A DNA stretch of 35,934 nt from an uncultured Ectothiorhodospiraceae bacterium (GTDB taxonomy: Bacteria; Pseudomonadota; Gammaproteobacteria; JAABTG01), in contig CALMKJ010000015.1 in the NCBI GenBank assembly GCA_937867305.1, positions 1 to 35,934 of the forward strand. Direction: 5' to 3'. Both the position numbers and the translations under genes were made by a program. The notes under the pieces were generated by a model, which was not told where the DNA came from, searched no databases, and worked only from the letters and a program-made list of their open reading frames with translations. Shown here piece after piece: positions 558 to 32,800 of the stretch (positions are counted from its first letter, which is position 1; every line of letters starts with the position of its first letter).

Positions 558-559
558 CG

Positions 560-1063: not shown

Positions 1064-1065
1064 CG

Positions 1066-1554
1066 ATGCGGGAAGACCTGCTCCAGCGGGTGCGGGAGGT
1101 CATGGCGCCTCTCGTGGAGCGCTTCGATCTCGCGCACGGGATGCCGGTCCTCACGCTGGCGCCCGGGCGGCTCCTGGAGACGGCGCGCCGGCTGAAAGAG
1201 GAGCTGGGGTTCGATCTGTTCCTCGACGTGACCGCGGTGGACTGGCCGGGCAACGAGCGGCGCTTCGAGGTGGTCTACCACTTCTACTCCGCGCGCCAGC
1301 GCGTGCGGCTGCGGGCGAAGACGCGCGTTGCGGAGGGCGAGCCCGTCGTCGACTCCCTGGTTTCGCTCTACGGCTCGGCCGGCTACATGGAGCGGGAGTG
1401 CCACGACATGTTCGGGATCGGTTTTCGCGGCAACCCCGACCTGCGTCCGGTCCTGCTGTACGAAGGCTTCGTGGGCCACCCGCTGCGCAAGGACTACCCC
1501 AAGGACCGGGAACAGCCCCTCGTGCCCACCCGGACCCGAGAGGAGCAACCGTGA
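1066..1554 (+). CDS. nuoC: NADH-quinone oxidoreductase subunit C (NuoC)
   Basis: This is the 30-kDa peripheral-arm subunit that packs against NuoD. The 162-residue product shows the family core: FLDVTAVDWPG, a beta strand with RFEVVYHFYS, and the signature YMERECHDMFGIGFRGNPDLRPVLL (about residues 105-129). It ends with GHPLRKDYP, the segment joining NuoC to NuoD in species where the two are fused. Here they are separate genes. The ATG at 1066 is two bases after the nuoB stop. The nuoC stop overlaps the nuoD GTG start by three bases (GTGA at 1551-1554). Length is slightly short but complete. Confidence 0.95.
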   Translation: MREDLLQRVREVMAPLVERFDLAHGMPVLTLAPGRLLETARRLKEELGFDLFLDVTAVDWPGNERRFEVVYHFYSARQRVRLRAKTRVAEGEPVVDSLVSLYGSAGYMERECHDMFGIGFRGNPDLRPVLLYEGFVGHPLRKDYPKDREQPLVPTRTREEQP

Positions 1555-2768: not shown

Positions 2769-3229
2769 AGCACCTCATCCCCGAGTGCGAGGCACTCAAG
2801 GCGCGCCTGCCGCAAGGGTTCGAGTCCACCCTGGTGCTGCCGTGCCTGCGCCGGGTTCAGGAAGAGCGGGGCTACGTCGCGGACGGCGACATCGACGCGC
2901 TGGCGCAGTATCTCGGGGTGCCTCGGGTCCAGATCGAGGAGGTGTTGAGCTTCTACACCCAGTTTCGGCGCCAGCCCATCGGCCGCTGGCACCTGCAGGC
3001 CTGTCACAACGTCTCCTGCTCCCTGCGGGGCGCCGGGAGCCTGCTGGACCGGCTTCGGGAGCGCCTCGGCATCGAGCCCGGGCAGACGACGCCGGACGGG
3101 CGTTTCACCCTGTCGACGGTGGAGTGCCTGGGGTCGTGCGGGACGGCGCCGGTGCTCGTGGTGAACGAGGTCTACCACGAGTCCATGACGCCGGAGAAGC
3201 TGGACGCCCTCCTTGAGGGGCTCGAGTAG
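2765..3229 (+). CDS. nuoE: NADH-quinone oxidoreductase subunit E (NuoE)
   Basis: NuoE is a thioredoxin-fold subunit of the NADH dehydrogenase module and carries [2Fe-2S] cluster N1a. The 154-residue product has all four ligands: Cys80 and Cys85 (ACHNVSC) and Cys121 and Cys125 (ECLGSC). The N-terminal helical part contains LPCLRRVQEERGY, followed by SFYTQFRRQPIGR. The GTG start at 2765 overlaps the nuoD stop by four bases (GTGA). The stop is one base before the nuoF GTG. It forms the 24/51-kDa pair with NuoF. Confidence 0.95.
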   Translation: MKHLIPECEALKARLPQGFESTLVLPCLRRVQEERGYVADGDIDALAQYLGVPRVQIEEVLSFYTQFRRQPIGRWHLQACHNVSCSLRGAGSLLDRLRERLGIEPGQTTPDGRFTLSTVECLGSCGTAPVLVVNEVYHESMTPEKLDALLEGLE

Positions 3230-3230
3230 C

Positions 3231-4607
3231 GTGAGCGGAGGAAAGCTCATCACCGGCTTCGCCGTGACGGCGACCTCGCACACGCTCGGCGAGTACCGCG
3301 CCCGCGGCGGGTACCAGGCGCTGGAGCGGGCGCTGCTGGGGATGAAGCCGGAGGAGGTCACCGGCGAGATCACCGCGTCCGGCCTGCAGGGCCGGGGCGG
3401 CGCCGCATTCCCGGTGGGGCGCAAGTGGTCGGTGATCCGCCCGGACGACGGCGAGACGCACTACCTCTGCGCCAACGCCGACGAGGGCGAGCCCGGCACC
3501 TTCAAGGACCGCTGGGTCCTCGAGAACGCGCCGCACCTCCTGCTCGAGGCGATGCTCATCGCCTCGTACGCCCTCGGGGTCCGGCACAGCTTCGTGTACA
3601 TCCGGGGCGAGTTCGACCTGGCCTACCGCCGCCTCGCCGGGGCGGTGGAGGAGGCGTACGGGGCGGGCCTCTTCGGGAAGGACATCTTCGGTAGCGGCTT
3701 CTCCTGCGACGTCTTCGTCGTCCGCGGCGCGGGCTCCTACGTCTGCGGCGAGGCCTCGGCGCTCATCACGTCCATCGAGGGCAAGAAGGGCTACCCGCGC
3801 AACCGGCCCCCGCGGCTCACGGTGCGCGGGCTCTACCAGAAGCCGACCGTCATCAACAACGTCGAGACGCTCGCCAACATCCCCTGGATCATCGCCCACG
3901 GCGCGCAGGCCTACCGGACCTTCGGGACGACGAAGAGCCCCGGGACGCGGCTCGTTTCCGTCTCGGGGCACGTGACCCGCCCGGGCGTCTACGAGGTCGA
4001 GCACGGCTACCCCGTGGGCCGCTTCATCCACGAGGACTGCGGCGGGGTGCTCGGGGGGAGGGCGCTGAAGGCCGTCATCCCCGGCGGGATTTCCACCAAG
4101 GTCCTGACCGCGTCGGAGATCGAGCCGCACCGTCTCGGCCACTTCGGCGACTGCGAGGACCGCCGCGTGCTTCCCCAGTCCGCGGGGATACCCCACCTGG
4201 AGCCCCTCGTCTTCGAGGGCGAGTCCTTGCAGGCGGCCGGCTCCTCGCTGGGGTCGGGCGGGATGATCGTGATCGCGGAAGGCACCTGCATGGTCCGCGT
4301 GCTGCAGGTGATGCTGCGGTTCTACCACCACGAGTCCTGCGGTCAGTGCACGCCCTGCCGCGAGGGCATGGGCTGGCTGCACCGCATCGTCGATCGGATC
4401 GTGTCCGGTCGGGGCCGGCCCGAGGACGTCGACCGGCTCTACGAGATCTCCCGGGCCAACGACGGCACCACGATCTGCGGCCTCGGCGACGCCGCCGGCT
4501 ACGCGACGGTCGGTATCCTCGACAAGTTCCGCTGCGAGTTCGAGTACTTCATCGCGCACGGGCGCTCACGCTACGACGGTTGCCTCGAATGCCTCGGATC
4601 TTCATAA
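3231..4607 (+). CDS. nuoF: NADH-quinone oxidoreductase subunit F (NuoF)
   Basis: NuoF oxidises NADH with FMN and passes electrons through [4Fe-4S] cluster N3. The FMN/NADH region reads GLQGRGGAAFPVGRKW, then NADEGEPGTFKDR and GAGSYVCGEASAL. The N3 ligands are Cys370, Cys373, Cys376 (ESCGQCTPCREG) and Cys416 (TICGLGDAA). Translation from the GTG at 3231, one base after the nuoE stop, gives 458 residues, a normal length. The last residues, YDGCLECLGSS, are a slightly unusual Cys-containing tail. This tail is encoded in the 19-base overlap with nuoG (4589-4607), the longest overlap in the operon. Confidence 0.95.
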   Translation: MSGGKLITGFAVTATSHTLGEYRARGGYQALERALLGMKPEEVTGEITASGLQGRGGAAFPVGRKWSVIRPDDGETHYLCANADEGEPGTFKDRWVLENAPHLLLEAMLIASYALGVRHSFVYIRGEFDLAYRRLAGAVEEAYGAGLFGKDIFGSGFSCDVFVVRGAGSYVCGEASALITSIEGKKGYPRNRPPRLTVRGLYQKPTVINNVETLANIPWIIAHGAQAYRTFGTTKSPGTRLVSVSGHVTRPGVYEVEHGYPVGRFIHEDCGGVLGGRALKAVIPGGISTKVLTASEIEPHRLGHFGDCEDRRVLPQSAGIPHLEPLVFEGESLQAAGSSLGSGGMIVIAEGTCMVRVLQVMLRFYHHESCGQCTPCREGMGWLHRIVDRIVSGRGRPEDVDRLYEISRANDGTTICGLGDAAGYATVGILDKFRCEFEYFIAHGRSRYDGCLECLGSS

Positions 4608-6019
4608 ACGGGCACCCGGTCGAGGCCGAGAAGGGCCAGACCGTGCTGCAGGCCGCGCTGGCCCACGGGTTCTTCATCCCGTACTTCTGCTGGCACCCCG
4701 CGCTCTCCGTCTCGGGCAACTGCCGGATCTGCGCCGTGGAGGTGGAGGGCGAGGACCTGGACATCGCCTGCAACATGCCGGTGCGCGAAGGGATGCGGGT
4801 GCTGACGGACTCCGAAGCGGTCCAGGCGTGGCGCAAGCGCATGATGCAGTTCATCACGCTGAACCACCCGGTGGACTGCGGCATCTGCGACAAGGCGGGC
4901 GAGTGCACGCTGCAGGACTACCACTACGAGTACAACGGCGAGCCCTCGGTGTCCCGGGAGCCGAAGGTCCACGCCACGAAGTTCTTCCGGCTCTCCGCGC
5001 GGGTCCTGATCGACAACGAGCGCTGCATCCTGTGCTCGCGCTGCGTGCGCTTCACCCACGAGGTCTCGCGCTCCCGGGCGCTCGGCATCCAGAACCGGGC
5101 CGACTCCTCCCTCGTGCGGGCATCGGAGGACGGCCGCTTCGAGGATGACCCCTACTCGGACAACGTGATCGACCTCTGTCCGGTGGGCGCGCTGTTCTCG
5201 CCCTCGCTGCTCTACCGGCACCGGGTCTGGTACCTCCAGGCCACGCCCTCGGTGTGTCCGGGGTGCGCGCGCGGGTGCACGGTGCGGATCTGGCACCGCC
5301 GCCCCGACTGGGCGCTCCACGCGCTCGACGGGCGCCAGAACGAGGCAATCGCGCGGGTCACCCCCCGCGAGAACCCCGCCGTCAACGGTCCGTGGATCTG
5401 CAACAAGGGCCGGGACCTCGCCCGGATCTTCGAGCGCCCCCGGGCCACGCAGGCGATGCTGAAGGGTGAGCCGGTCGCGCTCGGCACCGCCGTCGACGCG
5501 GCGCGCCGGCTGCTCGAGGGCGCGCGCCGGCCGGTGGCGCTGGTGTCCAACTGGGGCTCGAACGAGGAGCTCGAGGCCTTCCAGCGCGCGCTCGGCGGGC
5601 GCGTGAGGGCCTTCGTCAAGGAGGACTTCTCGCCGGCCCCCGGGGAGCCGGTCGAGGACGACCTCCTGATCCGCGCCGACAAGAACCCGAATACGGCCGC
5701 GGCGCGGGCGCTCTTCGGGGACGCGCCACCCGCCTTCGAAGACGGGACCGACCTGCTGCTCGTCTGGGGCGAGGGGCTCGACTTCTCCCGCCTGCCGACC
5801 CGGGTGCCCATCATCTGCCTGAACGCCTACCTGCAGCCCGAGAACGGCCACGCCGACGTGTTCCTGCCCGTGAGCGTCCAGACGGAGCGGGCGGGTCACT
5901 ACACGAACTTCCAGGGCGTGGTGAGCGCCTTCGAGCCCTGCTTCGCGAAGAGGGATTCGGTGGCGCACGCCGAGTCGCTCTTCGCCGCGCTCGCGTCGCC
6001 CCCGGGGCCGTCCCCATGA
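4589..6019 (+). CDS. nuoG: NADH-quinone oxidoreductase subunit G (NuoG), compact form
   Basis: NuoG is the Fe-S subunit that wires electrons from NuoE/F to NuoI. Ligand sets appear in order: [2Fe-2S] Cys34, Cys45, Cys48, Cys61; N5 His93, Cys97, Cys100, Cys106; N4 Cys146, Cys149, Cys152, Cys197; and an N7-type set Cys223, Cys226, Cys230, Cys271. The product is only 476 residues, against roughly 700-900 in most bacteria. After the Fe-S part only about 200 residues remain of the molybdopterin-oxidoreductase-like domain. The end still looks family-like (HADVFLPVSVQTERAGHYTN, then a short tail). The shortening is therefore internal, and there is no stop or frameshift. The ATG at 4589 overlaps nuoF by 19 bases; nuoH overlaps the stop (ATGA). 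Confidence 0.92.
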   Translation: MPRIFINGHPVEAEKGQTVLQAALAHGFFIPYFCWHPALSVSGNCRICAVEVEGEDLDIACNMPVREGMRVLTDSEAVQAWRKRMMQFITLNHPVDCGICDKAGECTLQDYHYEYNGEPSVSREPKVHATKFFRLSARVLIDNERCILCSRCVRFTHEVSRSRALGIQNRADSSLVRASEDGRFEDDPYSDNVIDLCPVGALFSPSLLYRHRVWYLQATPSVCPGCARGCTVRIWHRRPDWALHALDGRQNEAIARVTPRENPAVNGPWICNKGRDLARIFERPRATQAMLKGEPVALGTAVDAARRLLEGARRPVALVSNWGSNEELEAFQRALGGRVRAFVKEDFSPAPGEPVEDDLLIRADKNPNTAAARALFGDAPPAFEDGTDLLLVWGEGLDFSRLPTRVPIICLNAYLQPENGHADVFLPVSVQTERAGHYTNFQGVVSAFEPCFAKRDSVAHAESLFAALASPPGPSP

Positions 6020-7164
6020 TCCAGGACCTGGTGATCCACGTCGTCTTCATCGCCTACGCGATGGCGGTGCTCGTGCTGTTCGGCCTCCTGCTCACCTGGG
6101 TGGAGCGCAAGCAGGCGGCGATCATGTCGGACCGGCTCGGGGCCAACCGGGCCTACCTGCGCATCCCGTTCACGCAGGTGAAGCTCGTCTGGTGGGGCCT
6201 TTTCCACGGTCTCGCCGACGGGCTGAAGATGCTGTTGAAGGAGGACTTCAAGGCCAGGTCGCACGACTGGTACGCCTACGCCGTGGCGCCGTGGGTCGTG
6301 TTCACGCCGGTTCTGCTCGTGTTCGCGGTGATCCCCTTCGGCGGGACGCTGGTCCCGGGCGAGCTCGGCGCGAGCCTGGCCGAGTGGTTCGGGGACAGGA
6401 GCTACCCGATGCAGATCGCGCGGGTGGACGCGGGCCTGCTGATCGTCTTCGCGTTCGGCGGGATGACCACCATCGGGGCGATGCTCGCGGGCTGGTCGTC
6501 CTCCAACAAGTTCTCGCTGCTCGGGGCGCTGCGCGCCGGCTCCCAGATGATCTCCTACGAGCTGGTGCTCGCCCTCACGCTCCTCGGGCTCGTCCTCGTC
6601 TACGGCACGCTCGACCTCGGGGACGCGGTGCGCCAGCAGTCGGGGGTGGCGCTCGGCTTCCTCCCGGCCTGGGGCATCGTGTACCAGCCCTTCGCCGCCA
6701 TCCTCTTCCTCACCGCGGCCATCGCGGAGAACAAGCGCATTCCCTTCGACCTGCCGGAGGCGGAGTCGGAGCTCATCGCGGGGTATTTCACCGAATACAG
6801 CGCGATGAAGATGGGCCTCTTCATGTTCGCCGAGTTCATCGAGATCGCCATCATCGGCGCCCTCTTCACGACGCTCTTCCTCGGCGGCTACAACCTGCCG
6901 TTCATGACCGACTCGGGCTTCGTGCTCCCCGGCGGGCACGCCCTGCCCATGAGCCACGGCGCCGTGGTGGCGACGCAGCTGCTGGTGTTCCTGGCGAAGG
7001 TTCTGTTGATGTGCAGCTTCCAGATCCTGGTGCGCTGGTCCCTGCCGCGCTTCCGCTACGACCAGGTCCTGCACTTCGCCTGGAAGTTCCTCCTCCCCCT
7101 GACCCTGGCCAACCTGGTGGTGACGACCTTCGCGGTGTGGGCGATCCGTGGGGGGGCCGCGTGA
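6016..7164 (+). CDS. nuoH: NADH-quinone oxidoreductase subunit H (NuoH)
   Basis: NuoH is the membrane subunit at the peripheral-arm interface and forms the entrance of the quinone channel. The 382-residue product has about eight membrane segments. Conserved stretches include LTWVERKQAAIMSDRLGANRA near residue 30 and the charged loop IPFDLPEAESELIAGYFTEY near 245, rich in the acidic residues linked to quinone coupling. It is longer than the 325-residue E. coli protein, mainly through the hydrophilic loop around residues 85-140 and the loop before the last two helices. The ATG at 6016 overlaps the nuoG stop. The stop overlaps the nuoI GTG. Confidence 0.95.
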   Translation: MIQDLVIHVVFIAYAMAVLVLFGLLLTWVERKQAAIMSDRLGANRAYLRIPFTQVKLVWWGLFHGLADGLKMLLKEDFKARSHDWYAYAVAPWVVFTPVLLVFAVIPFGGTLVPGELGASLAEWFGDRSYPMQIARVDAGLLIVFAFGGMTTIGAMLAGWSSSNKFSLLGALRAGSQMISYELVLALTLLGLVLVYGTLDLGDAVRQQSGVALGFLPAWGIVYQPFAAILFLTAAIAENKRIPFDLPEAESELIAGYFTEYSAMKMGLFMFAEFIEIAIIGALFTTLFLGGYNLPFMTDSGFVLPGGHALPMSHGAVVATQLLVFLAKVLLMCSFQILVRWSLPRFRYDQVLHFAWKFLLPLTLANLVVTTFAVWAIRGGAA

Positions 7165-7742
7165 GCACCCGACGCCACCGCCGGAAGGTCTACTGGAACG
7201 AGCCCACCATGTCCTGGTGGGAGCGCATGTACCTGCCGGAGATCGTGCGCGGCCTCTCCATCACCGGAGGGGTGTTCCTGTCCAACCTGTGGCGCTGGGC
7301 GACCGGACGCAAGGGCGCGGTCACCACGTTCTACCCCGAAGAGACCCGCGCCGACTACGCCCCCGCCAATCGCGGCAAGCACATCCTGACCCGGCGCCCC
7401 GACGGCAGGCCGCAGTGCGTCGCCTGCAACCTGTGCGCGACCGTCTGTCCGGCCCGGGTCATCGAGATCGAGGCGGGTTTCGACCCCGACGATCGGGCAC
7501 ACCCCAAGTACCCGTTGCGTTTCGAGATCGACTACTCCCGCTGCGTCTTCTGCGGGCTCTGCGTGGAGGCCTGCCCGGAGGACGCCCTGCGGATGCTCCC
7601 GGAGGTCCCCGACCTGCCCGGACACGATCGCGACCGGATGTGGATCGGCCGGGAGGAGCTGCTCGACTGGAGCCCGCGCGGCGACGTCGCGAAGCCCTAC
7701 CCCCCGGGTGGGGAGCAGGTCAGGCCCGGAGGGGCGCACTGA
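7161..7742 (+). CDS. nuoI: NADH-quinone oxidoreductase subunit I (NuoI)
   Basis: NuoI is an 8Fe ferredoxin-like subunit holding [4Fe-4S] clusters N6a and N6b, between NuoG and NuoB. In the 193-residue product the two binding motifs are Cys86, Cys89, Cys92, Cys96 (CVACNLCATVCP) and Cys128, Cys131, Cys134, Cys138 (CVFCGLCVEACP). The N-terminal amphipathic helix region (about 20-50) probably lies on the membrane. The GTG at 7161 overlaps the nuoH stop by four bases. There is a longer N-terminal basic stretch (STRRHRRK) than in many homologues. The stop overlaps the nuoJ ATG by one base. Confidence 0.95.
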   Translation: MSTRRHRRKVYWNEPTMSWWERMYLPEIVRGLSITGGVFLSNLWRWATGRKGAVTTFYPEETRADYAPANRGKHILTRRPDGRPQCVACNLCATVCPARVIEIEAGFDPDDRAHPKYPLRFEIDYSRCVFCGLCVEACPEDALRMLPEVPDLPGHDRDRMWIGREELLDWSPRGDVAKPYPPGGEQVRPGGAH

Positions 7743-8266
7743 TGGAATGGCTGCTGGAGCACCTGGACCGTCTGCTCCTCTACGTCTTCGGGGCCGGCGC
7801 GCTCGTCAGCGCGCTCCTGATGCTGGTCCTGCGCCAACCGATGCGGGTCGCCCTGGCCCTCATCTCGGCCATGGTGTTCCTGGGGGGGATCTACGGGCTG
7901 CTCGGGGTCCACTTCATCGCCGCGTTCCAGGTGCTCATCTACGTCGGGGCGATCATGGTCTTCATGGTCTACGTGATCATGATGCTCGACCCGCGCGACC
8001 CCTCGTGCGCGGAGCGCTTCTCGGTCCTCGTCCTCCCCGCGGTCGTGGCCTTCGTGCTGCTCGTGGGCGTGCTCGGCTACGTGGTGTGGGCGGGGGCGCC
8101 CGCCCTCGCCGGTGGCGCGTACGGGTCGGTGTACGAATTGCGCCAGTTCGCCGCCTCGTTCCTGAAGGAGTACTGGCTGCACTTCGAGCTCACCTCGGTG
8201 CTGCTCGTCGTGGCGGTGGTCGCCGCCGTCGCGGTCATCCAGGTGCACCGGGGGAGACATGACTGA
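7742..8266 (+). CDS. nuoJ: NADH-quinone oxidoreductase subunit J (NuoJ)
   Basis: NuoJ is a membrane-arm subunit next to NuoK; its third helix contains the pi-bulge involved in coupling. The 174-residue product has five hydrophobic segments. The conserved third-helix region reads FQVLIYVGAIMVFMVYVIMM (about 62-81). The loop between helices 4 and 5 is Gly/Ala-rich. Length is normal. The ATG at 7742 shares one base with the nuoI stop, and the gene overlaps the start of nuoK by eight bases. Confidence 0.94.
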   Translation: MEWLLEHLDRLLLYVFGAGALVSALLMLVLRQPMRVALALISAMVFLGGIYGLLGVHFIAAFQVLIYVGAIMVFMVYVIMMLDPRDPSCAERFSVLVLPAVVAFVLLVGVLGYVVWAGAPALAGGAYGSVYELRQFAASFLKEYWLHFELTSVLLVVAVVAAVAVIQVHRGRHD

Positions 8267-8561
8267 CGCGCAGGTCCTGCTCACGTTGGCCGTGGCGCTG
8301 TTCGCCATCGGGTTCCTCGGCGTCGTCGTGCGCCGGCACATCCTCATCATGCTGATGTGCATGGAGCTCATGCTGAACGGCGTCAACCTGAGCCTGGTGA
8401 CGTTCGCCCACGAACAGGGGTCGCCCCTGGGCGCGGTCCTGGTGTTCCTGATCTTCGTGGTGGCCGCCGCCGAGATCGCCATCGCGATCCCGATCGCCCT
8501 GCTCCTGGTGCGGCGCAAGCGCACCGTGGACCTCTACGCCTACACCGACCTGAAGGGTTAG
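8259..8561 (+). CDS. nuoK: NADH-quinone oxidoreductase subunit K (NuoK)
   Basis: NuoK is an MrpC-like subunit with three membrane helices that takes part in proton translocation. The 100-residue product has Glu36 (MCMELMLNGVNL) and Glu72 (VVAAAEIAIAIP). These are at the same positions as the two buried glutamates known to be important in E. coli NuoK. Length matches the family exactly. It overlaps nuoJ by eight bases and precedes nuoL by three. Confidence 0.95.
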   Translation: MTDAQVLLTLAVALFAIGFLGVVVRRHILIMLMCMELMLNGVNLSLVTFAHEQGSPLGAVLVFLIFVVAAAEIAIAIPIALLLVRRKRTVDLYAYTDLKG

Positions 8562-8564
8562 ACG

Positions 8565-10445
8565 GTGTCTCACCTGCTCGTCTGGATCGTCCTTCTGCCC
8601 CTCGCCGGCTTCCTGTTCAATGGGCTTGCCGGCGACCGCCTCGGGGCCCGGGCCGTCTCCCTGGTCGGCTGCGGGCTGCCCATCGGGTCGTTCACGCTGA
8701 CCGTCGCGGGGGCCATCGCGCTCGCGGCGGCGGGTGGGGAGCCGCGGGTCGAGACGGCCTTCACCTGGGCCACCGTCGGCGACCACTCCTTCGAGGTCGC
8801 CTTCTACCTGGACCGGCTGAGCGTGGTCATGGCGCTCGTCGTCACCGGCGTCGGGTCGCTCATCCACGTCTATTCGACCGGGTACATGCGGGACGACCCG
8901 GGGTACGCCCGGTACTTCGCGTACCTGAACCTCTTCCTGTTCTTCATGCTGGTGCTGGTGCTGGGACGCTCGCTGCTGGTCCTGTTCGTGGGCTGGGAGG
9001 GAGTGGGGCTCGCCTCGTACCTGCTGATCGGCTTCTGGTTCCAGGACCCGGAGAAGGCCCGCGCCGGGAAGAAGGCCTTCATCACCAACCGGGTCGGGGA
9101 CGCGGGGTTTCTCCTCGGGATGTTCGTGCTGTTCCAGGCCGCCGGCACCCTGGAGATGGACCGGGTGAACGCGGTCTTCTCGACCGGCGCCCCGGCCGGT
9201 TTCTCCGCGAGCCTGATCGGCGTCCTCCTGTTCGTCGGTGCGACCGGAAAGTCGGCGCAGATCCCGCTGCACGTGTGGCTGCCGGACGCCATGGCGGGCC
9301 CGACGCCGGTATCCGCGCTGATCCACGCCGCCACCATGGTCACCGCGGGCGTGTACATGGTCGCCCGGCTCTCGGGGATCTACGGGCAGGCGCCCGAGGC
9401 CTCCGCGGTGATCGCCGCGGTGGGGGTGCTGACGGCCCTGTTCGCCGCGACGGTCGCACTCACCCAGAACGACATCAAGAAGGTGCTCGCCTACTCGACC
9501 ATCTCCCAGCTCGGGCTCATGTTCCTCGCCCTGGGGGTCGGGGCCTACGGCGTGGCCGTCTTCCACCTCTACACCCACGCCTTCTTCAAGGCCTGCCTGT
9601 TCCTCGGGGCCGGGAGCGTGATCCACGCCCTCGGGGGCGAGCAGGACATCCGCCGCATGGGGGGGCTCGCGCGCCGGGTCCCGACCACCTTCGCGACGTT
9701 CGCGGTGGCCGCGGCGGCCATCGCCGGGATCCCGCCGCTCGCGGGTTTCTTCTCCAAGGACGAGATCCTGTGGTTCGCGCTGGCGAGCCGGTCGGGAGGG
9801 GCGCTCTGGCTCTGGGCGCTCGCCGCGCTGACGGCGTTCCTCACCGCCTTCTACATGGCCCGGCTCCTGTGGTTGACGTTCCTGGCCCCCTCGCGCGTGG
9901 ACGCCGAGACCGCCCGCCACGTGCACGAATCGCCGCGCTCCATGACCGGAGTCCTGATCGCGCTGGCGGCGCTCTCGGCGGTCGGAGGCTTCGTGGGCGT
10001 GCCCCACCTGCTGGAGCCCCTGCTGCCGCTCCCCGAGGTGCGCCCCGGGCTCGACGCCCTGGAGACCCCGCTCGTCCTGCTCTCGGTCCTCCTGGCCGTG
10101 GGGGGGGTGGGCGCGGCCGCGTACGTGCTGGCGGCCGGGGAGGACCCGGCCGAGGTGTTTCGCCGGCGTTTCCCCGGGCTGCACCGGCTGGTGGCCGGCA
10201 AGTACTTCGTGGACGAGGCCTACGAGCGCTGGGTCACGCGCCCGCTGTACTGGGTTTCGGACCGCGTGTTCCTGCGATTCTCCGACCGCAGGGTCCTCGA
10301 CGGCTCCCTGCACGCCCTGGCGGCGCTCGCGGAGCGCAGCGCGGCCCGCTTGAGCCGGGCGCAGACCGGGAACCTCCAGCTCTACGCCTTCCTCGTGCTG
10401 GCGGGGATCGCGGCCGGGCTCTTGTGGAGCCTGCGCCATGTCTGA
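8565..10445 (+). CDS. nuoL: NADH-quinone oxidoreductase subunit L (NuoL)
   Basis: NuoL is the distal antiporter-like subunit of the membrane arm and carries the long lateral helix. The 626-residue product shows the proton-channel residues Glu145 (VGWEGVGLASYLLIG) and Lys229 (ATGKSAQIPLHVWLPDAM), close to or identical with E. coli numbering. Next comes PTPVSALIHAATMVTAGVYM and, in the second half, the QNDIKKVLAYSTISQLG signature. The C-terminal region after about residue 500 contains the lateral helix and ends in a final membrane segment. The start is a GTG at 8565, three bases after the nuoK stop. The gene overlaps nuoM by eight bases. Confidence 0.95.
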   Translation: MSHLLVWIVLLPLAGFLFNGLAGDRLGARAVSLVGCGLPIGSFTLTVAGAIALAAAGGEPRVETAFTWATVGDHSFEVAFYLDRLSVVMALVVTGVGSLIHVYSTGYMRDDPGYARYFAYLNLFLFFMLVLVLGRSLLVLFVGWEGVGLASYLLIGFWFQDPEKARAGKKAFITNRVGDAGFLLGMFVLFQAAGTLEMDRVNAVFSTGAPAGFSASLIGVLLFVGATGKSAQIPLHVWLPDAMAGPTPVSALIHAATMVTAGVYMVARLSGIYGQAPEASAVIAAVGVLTALFAATVALTQNDIKKVLAYSTISQLGLMFLALGVGAYGVAVFHLYTHAFFKACLFLGAGSVIHALGGEQDIRRMGGLARRVPTTFATFAVAAAAIAGIPPLAGFFSKDEILWFALASRSGGALWLWALAALTAFLTAFYMARLLWLTFLAPSRVDAETARHVHESPRSMTGVLIALAALSAVGGFVGVPHLLEPLLPLPEVRPGLDALETPLVLLSVLLAVGGVGAAAYVLAAGEDPAEVFRRRFPGLHRLVAGKYFVDEAYERWVTRPLYWVSDRVFLRFSDRRVLDGSLHALAALAERSAARLSRAQTGNLQLYAFLVLAGIAAGLLWSLRHV

Positions 10446-12033
10446 CGCGACGGTCCTGAACCTGGTGCTCTACCTGCCCGTGCTCGGCGCCCTGGCGCTG
10501 CCGGCGATCCCGGTGCGGCGCGAGGACCTGACGCGGGCGCTGGCGCTTGCCGTGATGGGGCTCCAGTTCCTGCTGACGGCCTACCTCTACGCCCGCTTCG
10601 ACCCCGCGGTCGCAGGCCTGCAGTTCGAGACCCGGCTGCCCTGGATCCCCTCCTGGGGCGTCTCCTACCAGATCGGGCTGGACGGCTTCAACGTCCTGCT
10701 CGTGCTCCTCACCGCCTTCCTCGGGCCGCTCGTGGTGGCGGGCGCGTTCACGGCCATCCGCAAGGACGTGAAGCTCTTCCACGCGATGGTGCTCCTCCTC
10801 CAGTTCACCATGCTGGGGACGTTCCTCGCCCAGGACCTGTTCCTGTTCTACCTGTTCTGGGAGGCGATGCTCATCCCCATGTTCCTCATCATCGGGGTCT
10901 GGGGCGGGGAGCGCCGCGTCTACGCCACCGTGAAGTTCGTGCTCTACACCGCCTTCGGCAGCATCCTCATGCTCGGGGCGGTCATCTACCTCGCCTACGC
11001 GGCGCACGCCGGGAGCGGGGTGAGCTCCTTCGCCTTCGCCGACCTGTACCGCACGACGCTCCCGGTGCCGGCGCAGACCGTGTTGCTCGCCGCTTTCGCC
11101 CTCTCGTTCGCCATCAAGGTCCCGATGGTGCCCTTCCACACGTGGCTGCCGGACGCGCACGTGGAGGCGCCGACCGCGGGCTCCGTGATCCTCGCCGGCG
11201 TCCTGCTGAAGATGGGGACGTACGGTTTCCTGAAGCTCGGTTTCCCGCTTTTCCCCGACGCGACCCGGCTGTTCACGCCGGCGATCATGACGCTCTCGGT
11301 GGTGAGCATCCTCTACGGGGCCGGCCTTGCCCTGGTGCAGACGGACATCAAGAGGGTCATCGCCTATTCCTCCATCAGCCACCTCGGGTACGTGATGCTC
11401 GGGCTCGTCAGCGCGGACCTGTTGGGCATCCAGGGCGCGATCCTCCAGATGGTGAGTCACGGGCTCACCGCCGGTGGGCTCTTCCTCCTGGTGGGGATGA
11501 TCTACGAGCGCTGCCACACCCGGGAGCTGGCTGCGTACGGTGGTCTGGCCCGGATCCTCCCAGTCTACTCGGTGTTCTTCATGATCCTCACCCTCGCCGC
11601 CATCGGCCTTCCCACCACCAGCGGTTTCACGGGTGAGTTCCTGGTGCTCCTCGGCGCCTTCAGCGCGGCCTGGCAGCAATACGAGCTGGGCGCGGTCCAG
11701 CCCCTCGCCCTGAGCGGCGCGGCGGTCCTGGGCGTGGTGCTGGGGGCGCTCTACATGCTTCGGCTCGCGGGGCGCCTCCTCTTCGGGGAGGCCAGGGTTC
11801 CCCACCAGCCCGTGGTCGACCTGGCCCTGCGCGAGAAGCTCGTGCTGGGGGCGATCGTGGCCGGGGTGTTCGCGCTCGGCCTCTACCCCCAGGAGCCCCT
11901 GCGCAAGAGCGAGCTCGCGGCCCGCCAGTACCAGGAACTGCTCGCCAGGGGGGTGGGCGCGGGAGGCCCGGCGCGGGCGCCGGAGGCCAGACCGCCCCGG
12001 CCCGCCGGCCAGACCGCGGGGAAGACCCCGTGA
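10438..12033 (+). CDS. nuoM: NADH-quinone oxidoreductase subunit M (NuoM)
   Basis: NuoM is the second antiporter-like proton-pumping subunit. The 531-residue product has Glu142 (YLFWEAMLIPMFLIIG), Lys227 (FAIKVPMVPFHTWLPDAH) and the later VQTDIKRVIAYSSISHLG motif, all family hallmarks. It has about 14 membrane segments. The last 35 or so residues after the final helix are a Gly/Pro/Ala/Arg-rich tail (GVGAGGPARAPEARPPR and on) that is low in complexity and longer than in E. coli. The ATG at 10438 lies inside the end of nuoL. The nuoN GTG overlaps its stop. Confidence 0.95.
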   Translation: MSDATVLNLVLYLPVLGALALPAIPVRREDLTRALALAVMGLQFLLTAYLYARFDPAVAGLQFETRLPWIPSWGVSYQIGLDGFNVLLVLLTAFLGPLVVAGAFTAIRKDVKLFHAMVLLLQFTMLGTFLAQDLFLFYLFWEAMLIPMFLIIGVWGGERRVYATVKFVLYTAFGSILMLGAVIYLAYAAHAGSGVSSFAFADLYRTTLPVPAQTVLLAAFALSFAIKVPMVPFHTWLPDAHVEAPTAGSVILAGVLLKMGTYGFLKLGFPLFPDATRLFTPAIMTLSVVSILYGAGLALVQTDIKRVIAYSSISHLGYVMLGLVSADLLGIQGAILQMVSHGLTAGGLFLLVGMIYERCHTRELAAYGGLARILPVYSVFFMILTLAAIGLPTTSGFTGEFLVLLGAFSAAWQQYELGAVQPLALSGAAVLGVVLGALYMLRLAGRLLFGEARVPHQPVVDLALREKLVLGAIVAGVFALGLYPQEPLRKSELAARQYQELLARGVGAGGPARAPEARPPRPAGQTAGKTP

Positions 12034-13439
12034 GCGCGGAGACGGTGTTGACCGCGTTGCTGCCCGAGGTTCTCCTCCTGGCCGGGCTCCTCCTGCTGAT
12101 CGGTCTGGAGATCGCAGTCCCCCGCCACCGGGGTGCCTTCGCCGTCTCCCTGCTGGCCGTGGCGGCGGCCGCCGCCGCTGCGGCGTGGCTCTCGGCGGGG
12201 GGATCTTCCGCGGCCCCGTTCCCCGGTCATTACTCGGTCGGCCCCGACACCTTCGCGGCCAAGGCGGTCGTGCTCGCGCTGGCGGTTCCCGTCCTGCTGC
12301 TCGCGCGCGGCGAATTCCCCGGCGGGCCGTTCTACCCCCTTCTGGTCTCCTCGCTCCTCGGTGTCTGTCTGGTGGTGTCGGCCGACAGCTTCCTCACCCT
12401 CTTCCTCGGGGTCGAGCTCATGTCGATCCCCGTGTACGTCCTCGTCGTGCTCGCCTTCCAGCGTGAGGAGAGCGCCGAGGCCGCGTTGAAGTACCTGGTG
12501 CTGAGTGGCACCGCGAGCGCCACGTTCCTGCTCGGGGTCTCGCTGCTCTACGGGGGAAGCGGGTCGCTCGCGCTCTCCGCGTTCAGTACGGCGCTGGGCT
12601 CCCGGGACGTGCTGGCCACCGCCGGCGTCGTGCTCGTGCTCTCCGCCTTCTTTCTGAAGGCGGCCGTGGTGCCGTTCCACACCTGGGCCCCCGACGCGTA
12701 CGAGGCCGCCAGCGTCCCGGTGACGGCCTACATGGCGGCGGTGGTCAAGGCCGGGGTCCTCTTCGCGGTGTTGCGCCTGTTCGCCCTGGCGCCGGCCGAG
12801 CGGCCCCTCGTCGACCTCCTCGCCCTGCTGCCACTCGCCTCGATGGTCTGGGGCAATCTGGCGGCGATGCGCCAGGACGGCCTCCGGCGCCTGATCGCGT
12901 ACTCCTCGATCGCCCACGCCGGCTATCTGTTCTACGCGTTCCTCGGGGACGGTCCCGGCCGCTTCCAGGCCGTCACGTTCTACCTCCTCGCCTACGGCCT
13001 GATGAACGTGCTGGTGCTCGCCGCGCTGCCGCCGGCCGGGGACGACGTCGCGCGGGATCGTCTCGAGCGCCTGAAGGGACTGTTCCAGCGCCAGCCGTAC
13101 GCCGCGTGGATGATCGCGGTGGCGATGCTCTCCCTGGCCGGGATCCCCCCGTTCCCCGGTTTCGTCGCGAAGTTCCTCGTCTTCAAGAACGTGGTCGCGG
13201 CGGGTTATCCGGTCTACGCGGTCCTGGGCCTCGTCGGCAGCTACCTCGGCCTCTACTTCTACCTGCGGGTGATCCAGTATCTGTTCATGGCCCCCCCGCC
13301 CCCGGCCGAGGAGGCGTCGGCGGCGGAGGGGGAGGGCGCCCCCAGCCGCCTGGCGCTGGCCGCCACGGTTCTGTGCCTGCTTCCTGCCATCCTGATCGCG
13401 CTCTTCCCCGGATGGGTCATCGACCGCCTCGGCGGCTGA
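12030..13439 (+). CDS. nuoN: NADH-quinone oxidoreductase subunit N (NuoN)
   Basis: NuoN is the third antiporter-like subunit and the last gene of the operon. The 469-residue product has Glu129 (LFLGVELMSIPVYVLV), Lys210 (SAFFLKAAVVPFHTWAPDAY) and MRQDGLRRLIAYSSIAHAGY, the family's conserved lysine-rich region. The acidic cytoplasmic loop before the last helix contains PPPPAEEASAAEGEG. The GTG start at 12030 overlaps the nuoM stop by four bases. No obvious intrinsic terminator follows; a 16-bp palindrome lies 15 bases past the stop. Confidence 0.95.
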   Translation: MSAETVLTALLPEVLLLAGLLLLIGLEIAVPRHRGAFAVSLLAVAAAAAAAAWLSAGGSSAAPFPGHYSVGPDTFAAKAVVLALAVPVLLLARGEFPGGPFYPLLVSSLLGVCLVVSADSFLTLFLGVELMSIPVYVLVVLAFQREESAEAALKYLVLSGTASATFLLGVSLLYGGSGSLALSAFSTALGSRDVLATAGVVLVLSAFFLKAAVVPFHTWAPDAYEAASVPVTAYMAAVVKAGVLFAVLRLFALAPAERPLVDLLALLPLASMVWGNLAAMRQDGLRRLIAYSSIAHAGYLFYAFLGDGPGRFQAVTFYLLAYGLMNVLVLAALPPAGDDVARDRLERLKGLFQRQPYAAWMIAVAMLSLAGIPPFPGFVAKFLVFKNVVAAGYPVYAVLGLVGSYLGLYFYLRVIQYLFMAPPPPAEEASAAEGEGAPSRLALAATVLCLLPAILIALFPGWVIDRLGG

Positions 13440-26806: not shown

Positions 26807-27757
26807 CTAGCTCAGCAGCGCGATCCACACCGGCAGGGTGACCAGGAAGGCGAGGCTGCTCCAGCTGGCGGTCAGCGCCGCGGCGCGCACGTCCAGGTTG
26901 AAGCGGTCCGCGAAGCCGGCGGCCATGACCATGGTGGGCATGGCCACCTCGAGGATGGCGGCGTTCTGTGCGGGGTGCAGGTCTCCCAGCGCGAGCCGCG
27001 TCAGGCCCCAGACGACGAGGGGCGCGACGGCGAGCTTGACGGCGACCGCGGCCAGCACCGGGCGGGTGGGTCTCAGGTCGCCCCAGGGAATCGACAGCCC
27101 CAGGGTGAAGAGCATGACGGGGATGGTGGCCTGGCCCATGAACCGGGCGGCCTTCACCAGGGGATCCAGCCCCAGGCCGGCGAAGTTCACCACGAAGCCC
27201 AGCACGTAGCCCCACACCGGCGGCAGGGTCAGCACGGTGCGGAAGAGGCTGTGGGCCCGTCCGCCGGGGTGGCCCAGGCCGGTGGCGATCCAGACCCCGA
27301 GGGTCCAGAGCAGGGGGGTGGAGGCCAGCACGTCGGCGAAGGCGGCGTAGGTGCCGCCGGCGTCGCCGTACAGGAAGGTGAGGGTGGGGTACCCCATGAA
27401 GAGCACGTTGCTGAAGCTCCCGGCCAGAAGGATGGCGGCGCGGGACTCGGGGCCCAGGCCCGCACCCAGGCGGGTGCGGTAGAGCAGGGTGTGGAGCAGG
27501 GCCAGGCCGACGAGGATGCCGGCCGCCATGATCACCGGCACGGTCAGCATCTGCCGGTCGACCTGGGCCTGGGCGGCGAGGGCGAACAGCAGGGGCGGGG
27601 CGAACACGTCCACCACCAGGCGGTTCAGGTCGACCCGCAGCCTGGCGGCGGGAAAGGCGTCGGCCCGGTAACGGGTCCACAGGCCGCCCGCGGCCACCAG
27701 CAGGGCGATGGGCAGCCAGACCTGCAGCAGGAGCTGGACCAGGAATTCCGTCGTCAA
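26807..27757 (-). CDS. AEC-family (auxin efflux carrier-like) permease
   Basis: The 316-residue product is a membrane protein of about ten helices in two halves. It shows the AEC/PIN-type features [10 protein letters not shown] near residue 55, [21 protein letters not shown] near 110, [17 protein letters not shown] and the conserved late motif [21 protein letters not shown]. Bacterial members export malonate, malate or other organic anions; the substrate here is unknown. The start is a TTG at 27757 that overlaps the recD2 stop by four bases (TTGA). Expression therefore probably depends on translation of recD2. It converges with the sulfatase gene, 51 bases away; a 6-bp stem at 26770-26790 is the only hairpin seen there. 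Confidence 0.88.
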
Positions 27758-29928
27758 GGTCGCGCCTCCCCTGCCAAGCGCTCGCGCAGGCGGGTGATCC
27801 GCCGCCGGGACTCGTGGCGGCGCACCGCCGTCCGCAGGGCCTTCGGCTCGGCGATGACGACGACCAGCTTCTTCCCGCGCGTGACCGCCGTGTAGAGCAG
27901 GTTGCGCTCCAGTAGCCGATAGTGCTGCATCGCCAGGGGGATCACCACCGCGGGGTACTCCGAGCCCTGGGACTTGTGGATGCTGGTCGCGTAGGCGAGG
28001 GCCAGCTCGTCGAGCTCCGCGACCTCGTAGGGCACCGCGCGGCCGTCGAAGTCCACGGTGACCGTGTGCTTCTCCAGGTCGATCGCCGAGATCCGGCCGA
28101 TGTCGCCGTTGAACACCTCCTTCTCGTAGCTGTTCACCCGCTGCACCACCTTGTCGCCGACCGCATAGGTCGTCCCGAACCTCTGCACCCGCGGCTCGCC
28201 GGCCGGGTTGAGCCGCTGCTGCAGCTCCAGGTTGATGGCCTGCACGCCGAGGCCGCCCCGGTTCATGGGCACCAGGACCTGGACGTCCTCGATGGGGTGG
28301 AGGCCGAATCGCCGGGGGATGCGGGTGGTGACGGTGGCGTAGAGCTTGGCCGCGACGTCCTCGGCGTCGGCCGCCTCGATCAGATAGAAATCGCTCGCCT
28401 CGCCCTTCTCCGGTGCCTGGGGCATCTCCCCGCGGTTGATGCGGTGCGCGTTGGTGATGATCCGGGAGCTGAGCGCCTGGCGGAAGATCTCGGTCAGGCG
28501 CACCGTGGGCACTGCCCCCGAATCGATGAGGTCGGCGAGCACCGCGCCGGGGCCGACCGACGGCAGCTGGTCCACGTCGCCGACGACGAGGAGCGCGGCG
28601 CGGTCCGGCACTGCGCGCAGCAGCTGGTTCATCAACACCGTGTCCATCATCGACGCCTCGTCGAGCACCAGCAGATCGGTGTCGAGGGGATGCTCGGCGT
28701 CGCGCTTGAACTGGAAGCTCGTGGGGTCGAGCTCCAGCAGCCGGTGCACCGTCTTCGCCTCGACCCCGGTCGTTTCGCTCAGGCGCTTGGCGGCGCGCCC
28801 GGTGGGCGCGGCCAGCAGGACGGAGACCCGCTTCGCCCGCAGGATCCGCAGCAGGCTGTTGACGAGCGTCGTCTTCCCCACCCCGGGCCCACCCGTGATG
28901 ATGCAGACCTTGCTCCGCACCATCACGGTGACCGCCTCCCGCTGGGACGGGGAGAGCGTGAGGTGGGTCTGGGCCTCCACCCAGGGCAGCGCCCGGTCCG
29001 GGTCGATGGCGCCCCAGGGGGGCGGCCCCCGGAGCAGGCGCTGCACGTGGGCCGCGCAGCCGAGCTCCGCCCGGTACAGGGGTGCGAGATAGAGCAGGTC
29101 CCCGTCGAGGATCAGGTTCTCGGCGGCCTGCTCGCTCGCGAGCGCCTGCTCGACGATCTCCGCCGGGATCTCGAGGAGCTCGACTGCCATTTCCCTCAGC
29201 TTCTGCGGCGTCGCCGCACAGTGGCCCTGCTCCGACCAGAGCTGCAGGACGTGCCGCACGCCCGCCTGGGCGCGGATCAGGGAGTCACGGGGAACCCCCA
29301 GGCTCTGGGCGATGAGGTCGGCGGTCTTGAACCCGATCCCCCAGACGTCGAGGGCCAGGCGGTAGGGATTCTCGGTGACCTTGACGATGGCCTCGTCGCC
29401 GTAGGCCTTGTAGATCCGGACGGCGCGGCCCGTGCCCACCCCGTGGGACTGCAGGAACACCATGATCTCGCGGATGACCTTCTGCTCGGCCCAGGCCGCG
29501 ACCACCTGCTGCCGACGCTTGGGGCCGATCCCCTCGAGCTCCTCGAGCCGCTCCGGGGTCCGGTCGATGACGTCGAACACCGCCTCGCCGAACGCCCGCA
29601 CCATCTGGCGCGCGAAATGGGGGCCGATCCCCTTGACCATCCCGGAGCCCAGGTACTTCTCGATCCCCTCCAGGGTGGTCGGCGGCACCACCGTCAGCCG
29701 ATCGGCCCGAAACTGCAGTCCGTGCTGCCGGTCGTTGACCCACTCGCCGTGGGCCTCGATGTACTCGCCGGCCGAGACGGCCGCGGCGTTGCCGATGACC
29801 GTGACCACGTCCCGCTGGCCTCTGACCTGCACCCGCAGCACGCAGAACCCCGACTGCTCGCTGTGAAAGGTGACGCGCTCGATGCTGCCGCTCAGGCGCT
29901 CGTGCGGGGCGGGCGGGTTGGGGGACAT
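27754..29928 (-). CDS. recD2: RecD2-type SF1 DNA helicase / ATP-dependent exonuclease subunit
   Basis: RecD2 is a 5'-3' superfamily 1B helicase found without RecBC. The 724-residue product begins with an OB-like domain ([20 protein letters not shown]). Helix-hairpin-helix repeats follow ([20 protein letters not shown] and [17 protein letters not shown]), as in Deinococcus RecD2. The helicase core has Walker [10 protein letters not shown] with Lys352, motif Ia [13 protein letters not shown], Walker [12 protein letters not shown], motif [16 protein letters not shown], and the SH3/UvrD-like end [19 protein letters not shown] and YTAVTRGKK. Length is standard. It is divergent from the ArdC-like gene and overlaps the AEC gene. 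RecD2 proteins act in repair and replication-fork processing. Confidence 0.95.
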
Positions 29929-29949
29929 GGCGCGGATTGTATCGTGCCG

Positions 29950-29999
29950 CCCGGCCTGCCCGGCCTGCCCGGCCTGCCCGGTCCGCCTGGCCCGCCCGG
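29950..29999. repeat. 9-bp tandem repeat between recD2 and the metallopeptidase gene
   Basis: CCCGGCCTG is repeated three times perfectly (29950-29976), then decays through two more partial copies. On the plus strand it would encode Gly-Leu-Pro / Gly-Pro-Pro in one frame. It sits in the 123-base divergent intergenic region, directly beside the recD2 start. Confidence 0.75.
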
Positions 30000-30051
30000 G
30001 GCCGCGCGGGTACGTTATCCTTACGGGGAAGGCCCGCACGAGGAGGCCCGC

Positions 30052-31182
30052 GTGGAAAACACCCCGGACAGACCCGAGCCCGCTGGTGAAGTGCTGCTGC
30101 ACCCGCACCGCATCGGGCGCGTGAAGGGCGTGGTGCTCGCCCTGTTGCGCGCGGGCTTCCAGCCATCGCCCCGGCAGTTGCTGGAGTCGGTGGAGAGAGA
30201 GGTCGAGTGGCTGGCCCGCTGGGACCTGCGGGACGCGCTCGGAGAGCTCGCCGAAGACCGCGCCCTCACGACGGGGTGCCGCGAGTACTGCCGCTTGGTC
30301 GGCCAGTCGCCCGACCTGAAGGAGGCGCTTGCCGGCAGCGGTGCGCCCGAGAAGGAAATCGTCTCCACCATCGACCCCCGCCTGAGGCGGACCCGCGCCT
30401 ATCGAGGCCGCGCGGAGTTCGAGGAGACGGTGACTTTCATGGCCCGGTTCAAGGAGTACGCGCCGTTCAACAACATGCTGGTGCGCCTCCAGAGCCCCGA
30501 GTGCCGCTACTACGCCACCGAGCGGGACTGGCGGGAACGGTTCGGGCGCACTCCCCGGGAAGACGCCAGACCGATGCTCATCCTGGCCCCGCGGCACCCC
30601 GTGCTGCTCGTCTACGATCTGGAAGAGACCAGCGGGCGCCATTTCCCGAAGGAGTCCCTGGAGCTCGAGGAGCTCGAGGGCGAATGGCACCCGCAATGGC
30701 TGTCGCGCCTGGGTGAGAACGCGGAGACGCACGACAGGATCAAGGTCGACTTCAAGGCCCTCTCCTCCACGCTCGCCGGGCACTCCACCATCGCGGCAGG
30801 AGATCGCGGCCACAAGATGAGGATTCGCATTCACGACGGCCTCGACGAGCCGGGCCGTTTCGCAGTGCTCTGCCACGAGCTGGCGCACGTCTACCTGGGG
30901 CACTTCGGCAGTGACCCCGACCACTGGTGGCCGTGGCGGCGCGAGCTGGACCATCGGACGGTCGAAGTGGAGACCGAGGCGACCGTGTACATCGTCTCGG
31001 CCCGAATCGGGTTGAAGGGGACGGGAGCGGAGTACGTGTCGCGGCACCTGGGGGAGGGCCCCGTGCCCGAGCACGTGTCGCTGGACCTCGTCGCGAAGGC
31101 GGCGAGCCGCATCGAGAGAATGGCTCGAGAGCACCTGCGCCCCCGCCGGGAACCGCGGCGAAGGGCGGGCAGGGTCGCCTGA
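30052..31182 (+). CDS. ArdC-like / ImmA-IrrE-type zinc metallopeptidase
   Basis: The 376-residue product has three parts. An N-terminal helical region (about 14-100) is unassigned. A central domain (about 125-200) with [20 protein letters not shown], then [20 protein letters not shown], resembles the ssDNA-binding N-terminal domain of ArdC anti-restriction proteins. A C-terminal zincin domain has [11 protein letters not shown] (His275, Glu276, His279) and a downstream [17 protein letters not shown] helix that could supply the third ligand (Glu305-309). The GTG at 30052 is preceded by AGGAGG at 30041-30046, which decides the start. A TATCCT element near 30016 may be the -10. Function is unknown. 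IrrE/ImmA relatives cleave repressors and ArdC protects DNA from restriction. Confidence 0.7.

Positions 31183-31230: not shown

Positions 31231-32800
<1,570 letters not shown>

What the first reader, a model, noticed from the sequence alone, without database searches (positions are those of the whole stretch)
27754..31182. ArdC-like metallopeptidase divergent from recD2: possible DNA-protection module
The product joins an ArdC-like ssDNA-binding-type domain, an HELAH zincin site and an unknown N-terminal region. It shares a control region with recD2. ArdC protects incoming DNA and IrrE/ImmA relatives trigger DNA-damage or mobile-element responses. A chromosomal copy beside a helicase suggests an undescribed repair, anti-restriction or defence role.
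Basis: partly seen in the sequence, partly recalled or inferred. Interest (0 to 1): 0.52.

Follow-up and report, generated by a model that had tools for sequence, protein, structure and literature searches.

The report
Orphan ArdC-type protease of restriction systems
This gene encodes a predicted DNA-binding zinc protease resembling the plasmid anti-restriction protein ArdC; its relatives often sit inside bacterial anti-virus operons built around DNA methylation, while this copy stands alone between housekeeping genes and is not lastingly tied to its helicase neighbour.

Summary
The gene is real: window 30052-31182 (+), 376 aa, 123 bp from the divergent recD2 (27754-29928, -). No curated family claims it (Pfam ArdcN and Peptidase_M78 both below cut-off). 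The predicted structure matches both domains of R388 ArdC (Z 11.6, 225 residues), preceded by a ~100-aa helical domain without a clear known fold. Metal ligands, general base and active-site Tyr are kept; two species of the genus retain the gene under purifying selection.

The recD2 pairing does not recur beyond the genus in what I sampled. Instead, relatives are often built into methylation-based defence operons: BREX-1 (between pglX and pglZ, with ATGA overlaps on both sides), type I R-M, DUF1156/DUF499 and MADS-like loci. Such genes lay in the fetched flanks of 10 of 22 loci outside the genus; 3 of 8 whole-genome loci had an N6-methyltransferase within 8 kb (P 8e-5 under uniform placement). 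The window genome lacks N6_Mtase, SWI2_SNF2 and PglZ matches, so this copy is an orphan.

Best reading: an ArdC-fold protease lineage that modulates methylation-based restriction, here solitary. The mechanism is inferred, not shown. New variant of a known kind.

The parts
30052..31182 (+). ArdC-like metallopeptidase gene, 376 aa, GTG start (GAGGAGG at 30040-30046)
   Evidence: full-length homologs; dN/dS
30052..30363 (+). N-terminal domain (residues 1-104): five predicted helices, no Pfam match for the window member and no clear known fold; found in this genus, L001 (BREX-1), L021 (phage contig) and L022 (type I R-M)
30367..30651 (+). ArdC-N-like domain (about residues 106-200); residues 153-195 match the Rad4 BHD hairpin, Z 5.9, rmsd 1.3 over 42 residues
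30673..31143 (+). zincin metallopeptidase domain (about residues 208-364)
30874..30888 (+). HELAH active-site motif (H275, E276, H279)
   Evidence: kept in 24 of 24 family members, except R for H275 in L010
30964..30966 (+). E305, aligned to the metal-binding E229 of R388 ArdC; Y328 (31033-31035) aligns to ArdC Y255
   Evidence: alignment; both invariant in 24 of 24; ArdC roles from passages of PMC7213743
29929..30051 (.). divergent intergenic region between recD2 and the gene, with 15-mer GGGTACGTTATCCTT (30008-30022) shared with the congener
27754..29928 (-). recD2 helicase (724 aa), neighbour, not shown to be a functional partner
31231..31926 (+). QueC-like gene downstream (48-bp gap here, 568-bp gap with a short transporter-like ORF in the congener); named by recall from the translation

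Best explanation
The gene encodes an ArdC-fold, single-strand-DNA-binding zinc metallopeptidase of a lineage that repeatedly forms part of methylation-based defence operons (BREX-1, type I R-M, BREX-related DUF1156/DUF499, MADS-like). In those operons I propose that it acts as a built-in restriction modulator: it is recruited to ssDNA made during damage, repair or DNA entry and clips or displaces the restriction/translocation machinery, so that unmethylated self or newly entered DNA survives. It would thus do locally what ClpXP does for EcoKI. The window copy has lost any linked system and persists alone on the chromosome, presumably still as a ssDNA-directed protease that protects DNA. Shown here: gene, predicted fold, intact active site, purifying selection, defence-operon context of relatives, absence of three R-M/BREX marker families from the window genome. 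Inferred: DNA binding, proteolysis, substrate, and the alleviation role.
For: Fold: ArdC over both domains, Z 11.6 and 10.8, next rows about 6; ArdC is also the best PDB sequence match to the family profile (E 0.18). Active site kept in 23 of 24 family members, L010 having R for H275. Purifying selection. Context: L001 homolog, 53% identical, lies between pglX (PDLC02528, 1450.9 bits) and pglZ (NF033450, 867.1 bits), with ATGA overlaps at both junctions; L022 homolog follows hsdR-hsdM-hsdS; L011 gene 28 bp after hsdR; L025 gene inside an operon with a NOV_C helicase and DUF1156 (gaps 23 and 18 bp); L013 DUF1156+DUF499; L014 MAD2/MAD5-like; L050 HsdM and HsdR downstream; L015 ATGA overlap with a 1647-aa methyltransferase; L017 methylase/helicase operon. 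Enrichment: 3 of 8 whole-genome loci within 8 kb of an N6_Mtase, P 7.5e-5 under uniform placement. The five full-length homologs form a clade (UFBoot 100), in which the window pair is sister to L022, L021 and L001. Precedent: ArdC counters HsdRMS (PMC7213743, passages); ClpXP degrades HsdR for restriction alleviation (PMC11109961, passages).
Against: 12 of 22 examined loci outside the genus have no recognised R-M/BREX gene in the fetched flank, although several sit at contig ends. The window genome has no N6_Mtase, SWI2_SNF2 or PglZ match, so the window copy has no obvious restriction system of these kinds to modulate; the congener has a type I-like locus, but on another contig. In R388 ArdC the metal-ligand mutant E229A still worked in conjugation (PMC7213743), so a conserved protease site does not prove that antirestriction is proteolytic. 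Mobile-element cargo co-localises in general, and the uniform-placement control does not allow for that. Foldseek alone gave no hit at E<=0.001 in PDB.
Confidence: 0.42

Rival explanations
1. Passive ArdC-type anti-restriction: the protein coats DNA through the ArdC-N-like domain and blocks restriction without proteolysis; R-M- or BREX-bearing elements carry it to establish in new hosts, and the window copy is a leftover that still aids DNA uptake.
For: Best structural match is ArdC; R388 ArdC needs no protease function for antirestriction (PMC7213743, passages); homologs on plasmids and phage-like contigs.
Against: Metal ligands, general base and Tyr are conserved in 23 of 24 members, which suggests that catalysis matters; translational coupling inside the BREX operon suits a system component better than hitch-hiking.
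Confidence: 0.25
2. IrrE/ImmA-like regulatory protease: when bound to ssDNA it cleaves a repressor and switches on defence or repair genes, perhaps including recD2 across the shared intergenic region.
For: IrrE is the next structural match (Z 6.3); divergent layout with recD2 and a 15-mer shared by both congeners; WYL-type regulator genes near the homologs in L015 (annotated) and L026 (by sight).
Against: Peptidase_M78 below cut-off (17.1 vs 22); I recognised no XRE-type repressor next to the window gene (by sight); recD2 linkage is confined to the genus in the sampled data.
Confidence: 0.14
3. Defence effector or anti-anti-restriction factor: once the methyltransferase system senses foreign DNA, the protease cleaves phage or host proteins, such as phage anti-restriction proteins.
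For: Occurs inside BREX-1, type I, DUF499 and MADS-like operons.
Against: It is an optional gene (7 of 369 genomes of the class carry a family member, the window genome and its congener included); the ArdC lineage is known from mobile elements that defeat restriction (PMC5512222, passages); a solitary chromosomal copy needs another explanation.
Confidence: 0.14

Closest known systems
ArdC of plasmid R388 (PDB 6I89, 6SNA; PMC7213743, abstract and passages seen)
   Same: Two-domain fold (ArdC-N-like plus zincin), HExxH with Glu and Tyr at the positions of E229 and Y255.
   Different: Sequence barely related (ArdcN 12.4 bits, cut-off 22.6); extra N-terminal helical domain; chromosomal setting; lineage tied to R-M and BREX operons.
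Polyvalent-protein MPTase/ArdC-N families (PMC5512222, passages seen)
   Same: ArdC-N followed by a zincin domain in one polypeptide.
   Different: Stand-alone protein, not a large multidomain polypeptide; gene often beside or within a methyltransferase operon.
IrrE/PprI and ImmA (Peptidase_M78)
   Same: Zincin core with HExxH; IrrE Z 6.3.
   Different: Pfam score below cut-off (17.1 vs 22); carries an ArdC-N-like part.
SprT/Spartan
   Same: Zincin core, Z 4.7-4.9 for 6mdw and 6mdx.
   Different: Third ligand is Glu-type here and His in Spartan (PMC7213743, passage); Pfam SprT-like 13 vs 25.6.
BREX, type I R-M, DUF499 BREX-related and MADS systems
   Same: Homologs are encoded in such operons.
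   Different: The window gene has no such neighbour. The words 'zincin', 'IrrE' and 'HEXXH' occur 0 times in the main text of the 2026 BREX survey PMC12839542 (word searches).

Membership tests
ArdC | Pfam ArdcN at gathering score | tested here: not met
   12.4 bits vs 22.6
ArdC | two-domain ArdC fold | tested here: met
   6sna_A Z 11.6, rmsd 6.0, 225 residues; 6i89 Z 10.8, 229 residues, predicted model pLDDT 79.9
ArdC | gluzincin active site (HExxH, Glu ligand, Tyr) | tested here: met
   H275, E276, H279, E305, Y328 align to ArdC, conserved in the family
ArdC | non-specific ssDNA binding | not testable with these tools
   needs a binding assay
ArdC | antirestriction against HsdRMS | not testable with these tools
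   needs an in vivo assay
ArdC | carried by a conjugative plasmid | tested here: not met
   contig carries the respiratory complex I operon and recD2/queC; chromosomal by inference
IrrE/ImmA (Peptidase_M78) | Pfam gathering score | tested here: not met
   17.1 bits vs 22; 0 matches in the whole genome at E<=0.001
SprT/Spartan | Pfam SprT-like gathering score | tested here: not met
   13 bits vs 25.6
Component of a BREX or type I R-M system (window copy) | linked methyltransferase, restriction or PglZ gene | tested here: not met
   no N6_Mtase, SWI2_SNF2 or PglZ match in the whole genome; none among the ten window genes scanned
Component of a BREX or type I R-M system (full-length relatives) | operon with pglX/pglZ or hsdRMS | tested here: met
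   L001 and L022 yes; L021, cut at a contig edge, no
recD2-linked repair module | recurrent recD2 neighbour outside the genus | tested here: not met
   G002, L001, L021, L022 and two plasmid recD2 loci lack the pairing; RecD2-like helicase near the distant homolog L023 noted

The most novel reading that the evidence does not exclude
There is an unrecognised family of ArdC-fold metalloproteases that serve as in-operon restriction-control proteases, shared by BREX, type I R-M, DUF499 and MADS-like systems. What these systems have in common is the need for self-protection when unmethylated DNA is exposed. The window genus has detached such a protease and kept it as a stand-alone chromosomal DNA-protection factor.
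Probability: 0.28. Interest if true: 0.75.

Novelty: new variant of a known kind. Interest (0 to 1): 0.5.

Why it matters
BREX, DISARM-like and DUF499 systems have no known counterpart of ClpXP-driven restriction alleviation (recalled, not searched). A translationally coupled ArdC-type protease inside a BREX-1 operon, and relatives in type I and BREX-related operons, give a concrete candidate that can be tested by a clean gene removal. It would also recast ArdC-like proteins, so far read as weapons of plasmids, as parts of the defence systems themselves.

Tried and rejected
RecD2 partnership: looked for in the sister-genus genome, in the full-length homologs and on plasmids, and not found beyond the genus, apart from the RecD2-like helicase near L023. 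Gene-queC operon: rejected as a conserved unit, because the congener has a 568-bp gap with a short transporter-like ORF. N-terminal domain: its own model against PDB gave no Foldseek hit at E<=0.001, best VIA Z 6.2 on scattered helical proteins; winged-helix-like rows at Z about 3-5 are not evidence; Pfam gave 0 matches for the window member. More full-length homologs: viral scans with L001 (none) and L022 (only itself) added nothing; A4 returned the same two contigs; a second class search drew largely the same genomes. Phage records: two weak hits each, not opened. A promoter scan found nothing. Literature: searches found no report of ArdC-like genes as BREX or R-M operon members. That claim rests on those searches, on search listings, and on passages of PMC5512222, PMC7213743, PMC9122589, PMC9009780, PMC11109961 and PMC12839542; no paper was read whole.

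Rows dropped before the 22-locus count: viral hits L030-L049 (weaker; L030 was looked at, no R-M gene recognised by sight), the second Haematobacter plasmid and the weaker plasmid hits (H6-H15, H22-H35), phage hits H16, H17, H41, H42; loci that repeat the same places (L019, L020, L057, L058, L061-L063, L066-L072) were not counted again.
Full report
What is there. The gene covers window 30052-31182 (+) and encodes 376 aa. It starts at GTG, 5 bases after GAGGAGG. The minus-strand neighbour is recD2, 27754-29928 (TIGR01448, 863.7 bits), 123 bp away and divergent. The 1086-aa ORF includes antisense read-through of recD2. The downstream gene, which I name queC by recall, starts 48 bp later.

Is it real? 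The only other genome of the genus held (G001) has the same recD2 | gene | queC layout. The proteins are 87% identical. NG86 dN/dS is 0.065/0.237 for the gene, and 0.033/0.254, 0.048/0.138 and 0.026/0.143 for queC, the AEC transporter and the recD2 C-terminal part. The gene is under purifying selection, somewhat looser than queC and recD2. Of 56 genomes searched (the window's own included), only the two of the genus have it.

What it encodes. Curated profiles give only sub-threshold hits: Peptidase_M78 17.1 (cut-off 22), SprT-like 13 (25.6), ArdcN 12.4 (22.6); NCBIfam has none. PADLOC gave one match, to the C-terminal part of an RT_III-A profile (E 8.5e-6). AlphaFold2 with a 15-row alignment gave pLDDT 79.9 and pTM 0.71. 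The VIA-align second look placed ArdC first, over both domains: 6sna_A Z 11.6, rmsd 6.0, 225 residues, model 106-364; 6i89 Z 10.8. IrrE followed at Z 6.3. The Rad4 hairpin matched at residues 153-195 with rmsd 1.3 over 42 residues. Foldseek by itself had no PDB match at E<=0.001. A family profile against PDB sequences put ArdC first, but weakly (E 0.18). That alignment pairs H275, E276, H279, E305 and Y328 with H201, E202, H205, E229 and Y255 of ArdC, the residues that PMC7213743 assigns to the active site (passages). In a 24-member family alignment E276, H279, E305, E309 and Y328 are invariant and H275 is R only in L010. Residues 1-104 form a five-helix domain present in only five homologs found (window, G001, L001, L021, L022), with no clear structural relative.

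Where relatives live. I examined 22 loci outside the genus: 8 from whole genomes (L010-L014, L050, L064, L065), 1 from genome contigs (L001), 9 from viral contigs (L021-L029) and 4 from plasmids (L015-L018). Methyltransferase-type defence genes were found in the fetched flank of 10 of 22: L001 (BREX-1: PglX 1450.9, PglZ 867.1, BrxL 641.6 bits), L022 (HsdR, HsdM, HsdS), L011 (HsdR, HsdS), L050 (HsdM, HsdR), L013 (DUF1156, DUF499), L025 (DUF1156; NOV_C helicase), L014 (N6_Mtase; MAD2-like 252.9 and MAD5-like 107.7 bits, both below cut-off), L015 and L017 (large methyltransferases and helicases), and, more weakly, L026 (HsdR-like, 2.4 kb away on the other strand). The other 12 (L010, L012, L016, L018, L021, L023, L024, L027, L028, L029, L064, L065) had none that I recognised; several lie at contig ends, and for most I judged by ORF listing and sight, with annotation for L016 and L018. 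L018 has an annotated DNA adenine methylase about 2 kb away, not counted. In L001 the gene overlaps the pglX stop and the pglZ start by 4 bases each; in L015 it overlaps the methyltransferase stop in the same way.

A numerical control. For the 8 whole-genome loci, N6_Mtase matches were mapped in the same genomes; 3 of 8 homologs (G338, G251, G699) lie within 8 kb of one. With locus counts merged by hand and rounded genome sizes, 0.09 would be expected under uniform placement; P(>=3) is 7.5e-5. This does not correct for clustering of mobile cargo.

The window copy is an orphan. Whole-genome searches found no N6_Mtase, no PglZ and no SWI2_SNF2 as in HsdR in G000; G001 has N6_Mtase and SWI2_SNF2 matches on another contig. 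In the tree the five full-length proteins form a clade (UFBoot 100), the window pair being sister to the group of L022, L021 and L001 (78 for that group). An ancestral place in a defence operon is plausible but not proven.

RecD2. The sister-genus genome G002 has two recD2 matches and no such gene beside either, though one is at a contig edge. RecD2 of this type is common on plasmids (268 records at E<=1e-100); the two plasmid loci opened lack the gene. L023 carries a RecD2-like helicase (200 bits to TIGR01448, cut-off 500) two genes upstream of a distant core homolog. The pairing looks like local synteny of one genus.

Mechanism. ArdC counters HsdRMS, and its E229A mutant still does so (PMC7213743, passages). 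EcoKI alleviation works through ClpXP proteolysis of HsdR on unmethylated self DNA (PMC11109961, passages). A conserved protease on an ssDNA-binding fold, translationally coupled to methyltransferase systems, fits a built-in modulator of restriction best. This is inference. Passive DNA cover, an IrrE-like switch, and an effector role remain open, with the weights given.

Known or new. ArdC and the polyvalent MPTase proteins are known (PMC5512222, PMC7213743). I found no report of this family as a member of BREX or R-M operons in the searches listed; the 2026 BREX survey PMC12839542 has no occurrence of 'zincin', 'IrrE' or 'HEXXH' in its main text.

Noticed in passing
P0001 residues 248-355 (window 30793-31116) vs PADLOC PDLC02944 (RT_III-A), positions 481-589: The C-terminal zincin part matches the C-terminal region of a reverse-transcriptase profile linked to type III-A CRISPR (E 8.5e-6; L001 homolog E 8e-4), which hints at RT-zincin fusions.
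   Followed up: no
L023 1242-6831: Viral contig with a 1251-aa RecD2-like helicase, an ADP-ribosylglycohydrolase-like gene (by sight) and a core homolog in a row.
   Followed up: partly
L058 66-10080: Contig classed as viral (DnaB-like helicase by sight) that carries a full type I R-M operon plus the full-length homolog.
   Followed up: partly
window 27754-29928: RecD2 of this type is frequent on plasmids (268 plasmid records at E<=1e-100), up to 70% identical.
   Followed up: partly
L010 6335-7255: Homolog with R in place of the first HExxH histidine; possibly inactive.
   Followed up: no
L004 13625-14192: In the congener a short transporter-like ORF (EamA-like by sight) lies between the gene and queC.
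   Followed up: no
window 122-13436: Complex I (nuo) operon on the same contig.
   Followed up: no
window 31965-31990: AT-rich near-palindrome upstream of a modA-like gene in an otherwise GC-rich contig, resembling a ModE box (recalled).
   Followed up: no
window 29950-29985: Short GGCCTGCCC tandem repeats in the recD2-gene intergenic region, absent from the congener.
   Followed up: no
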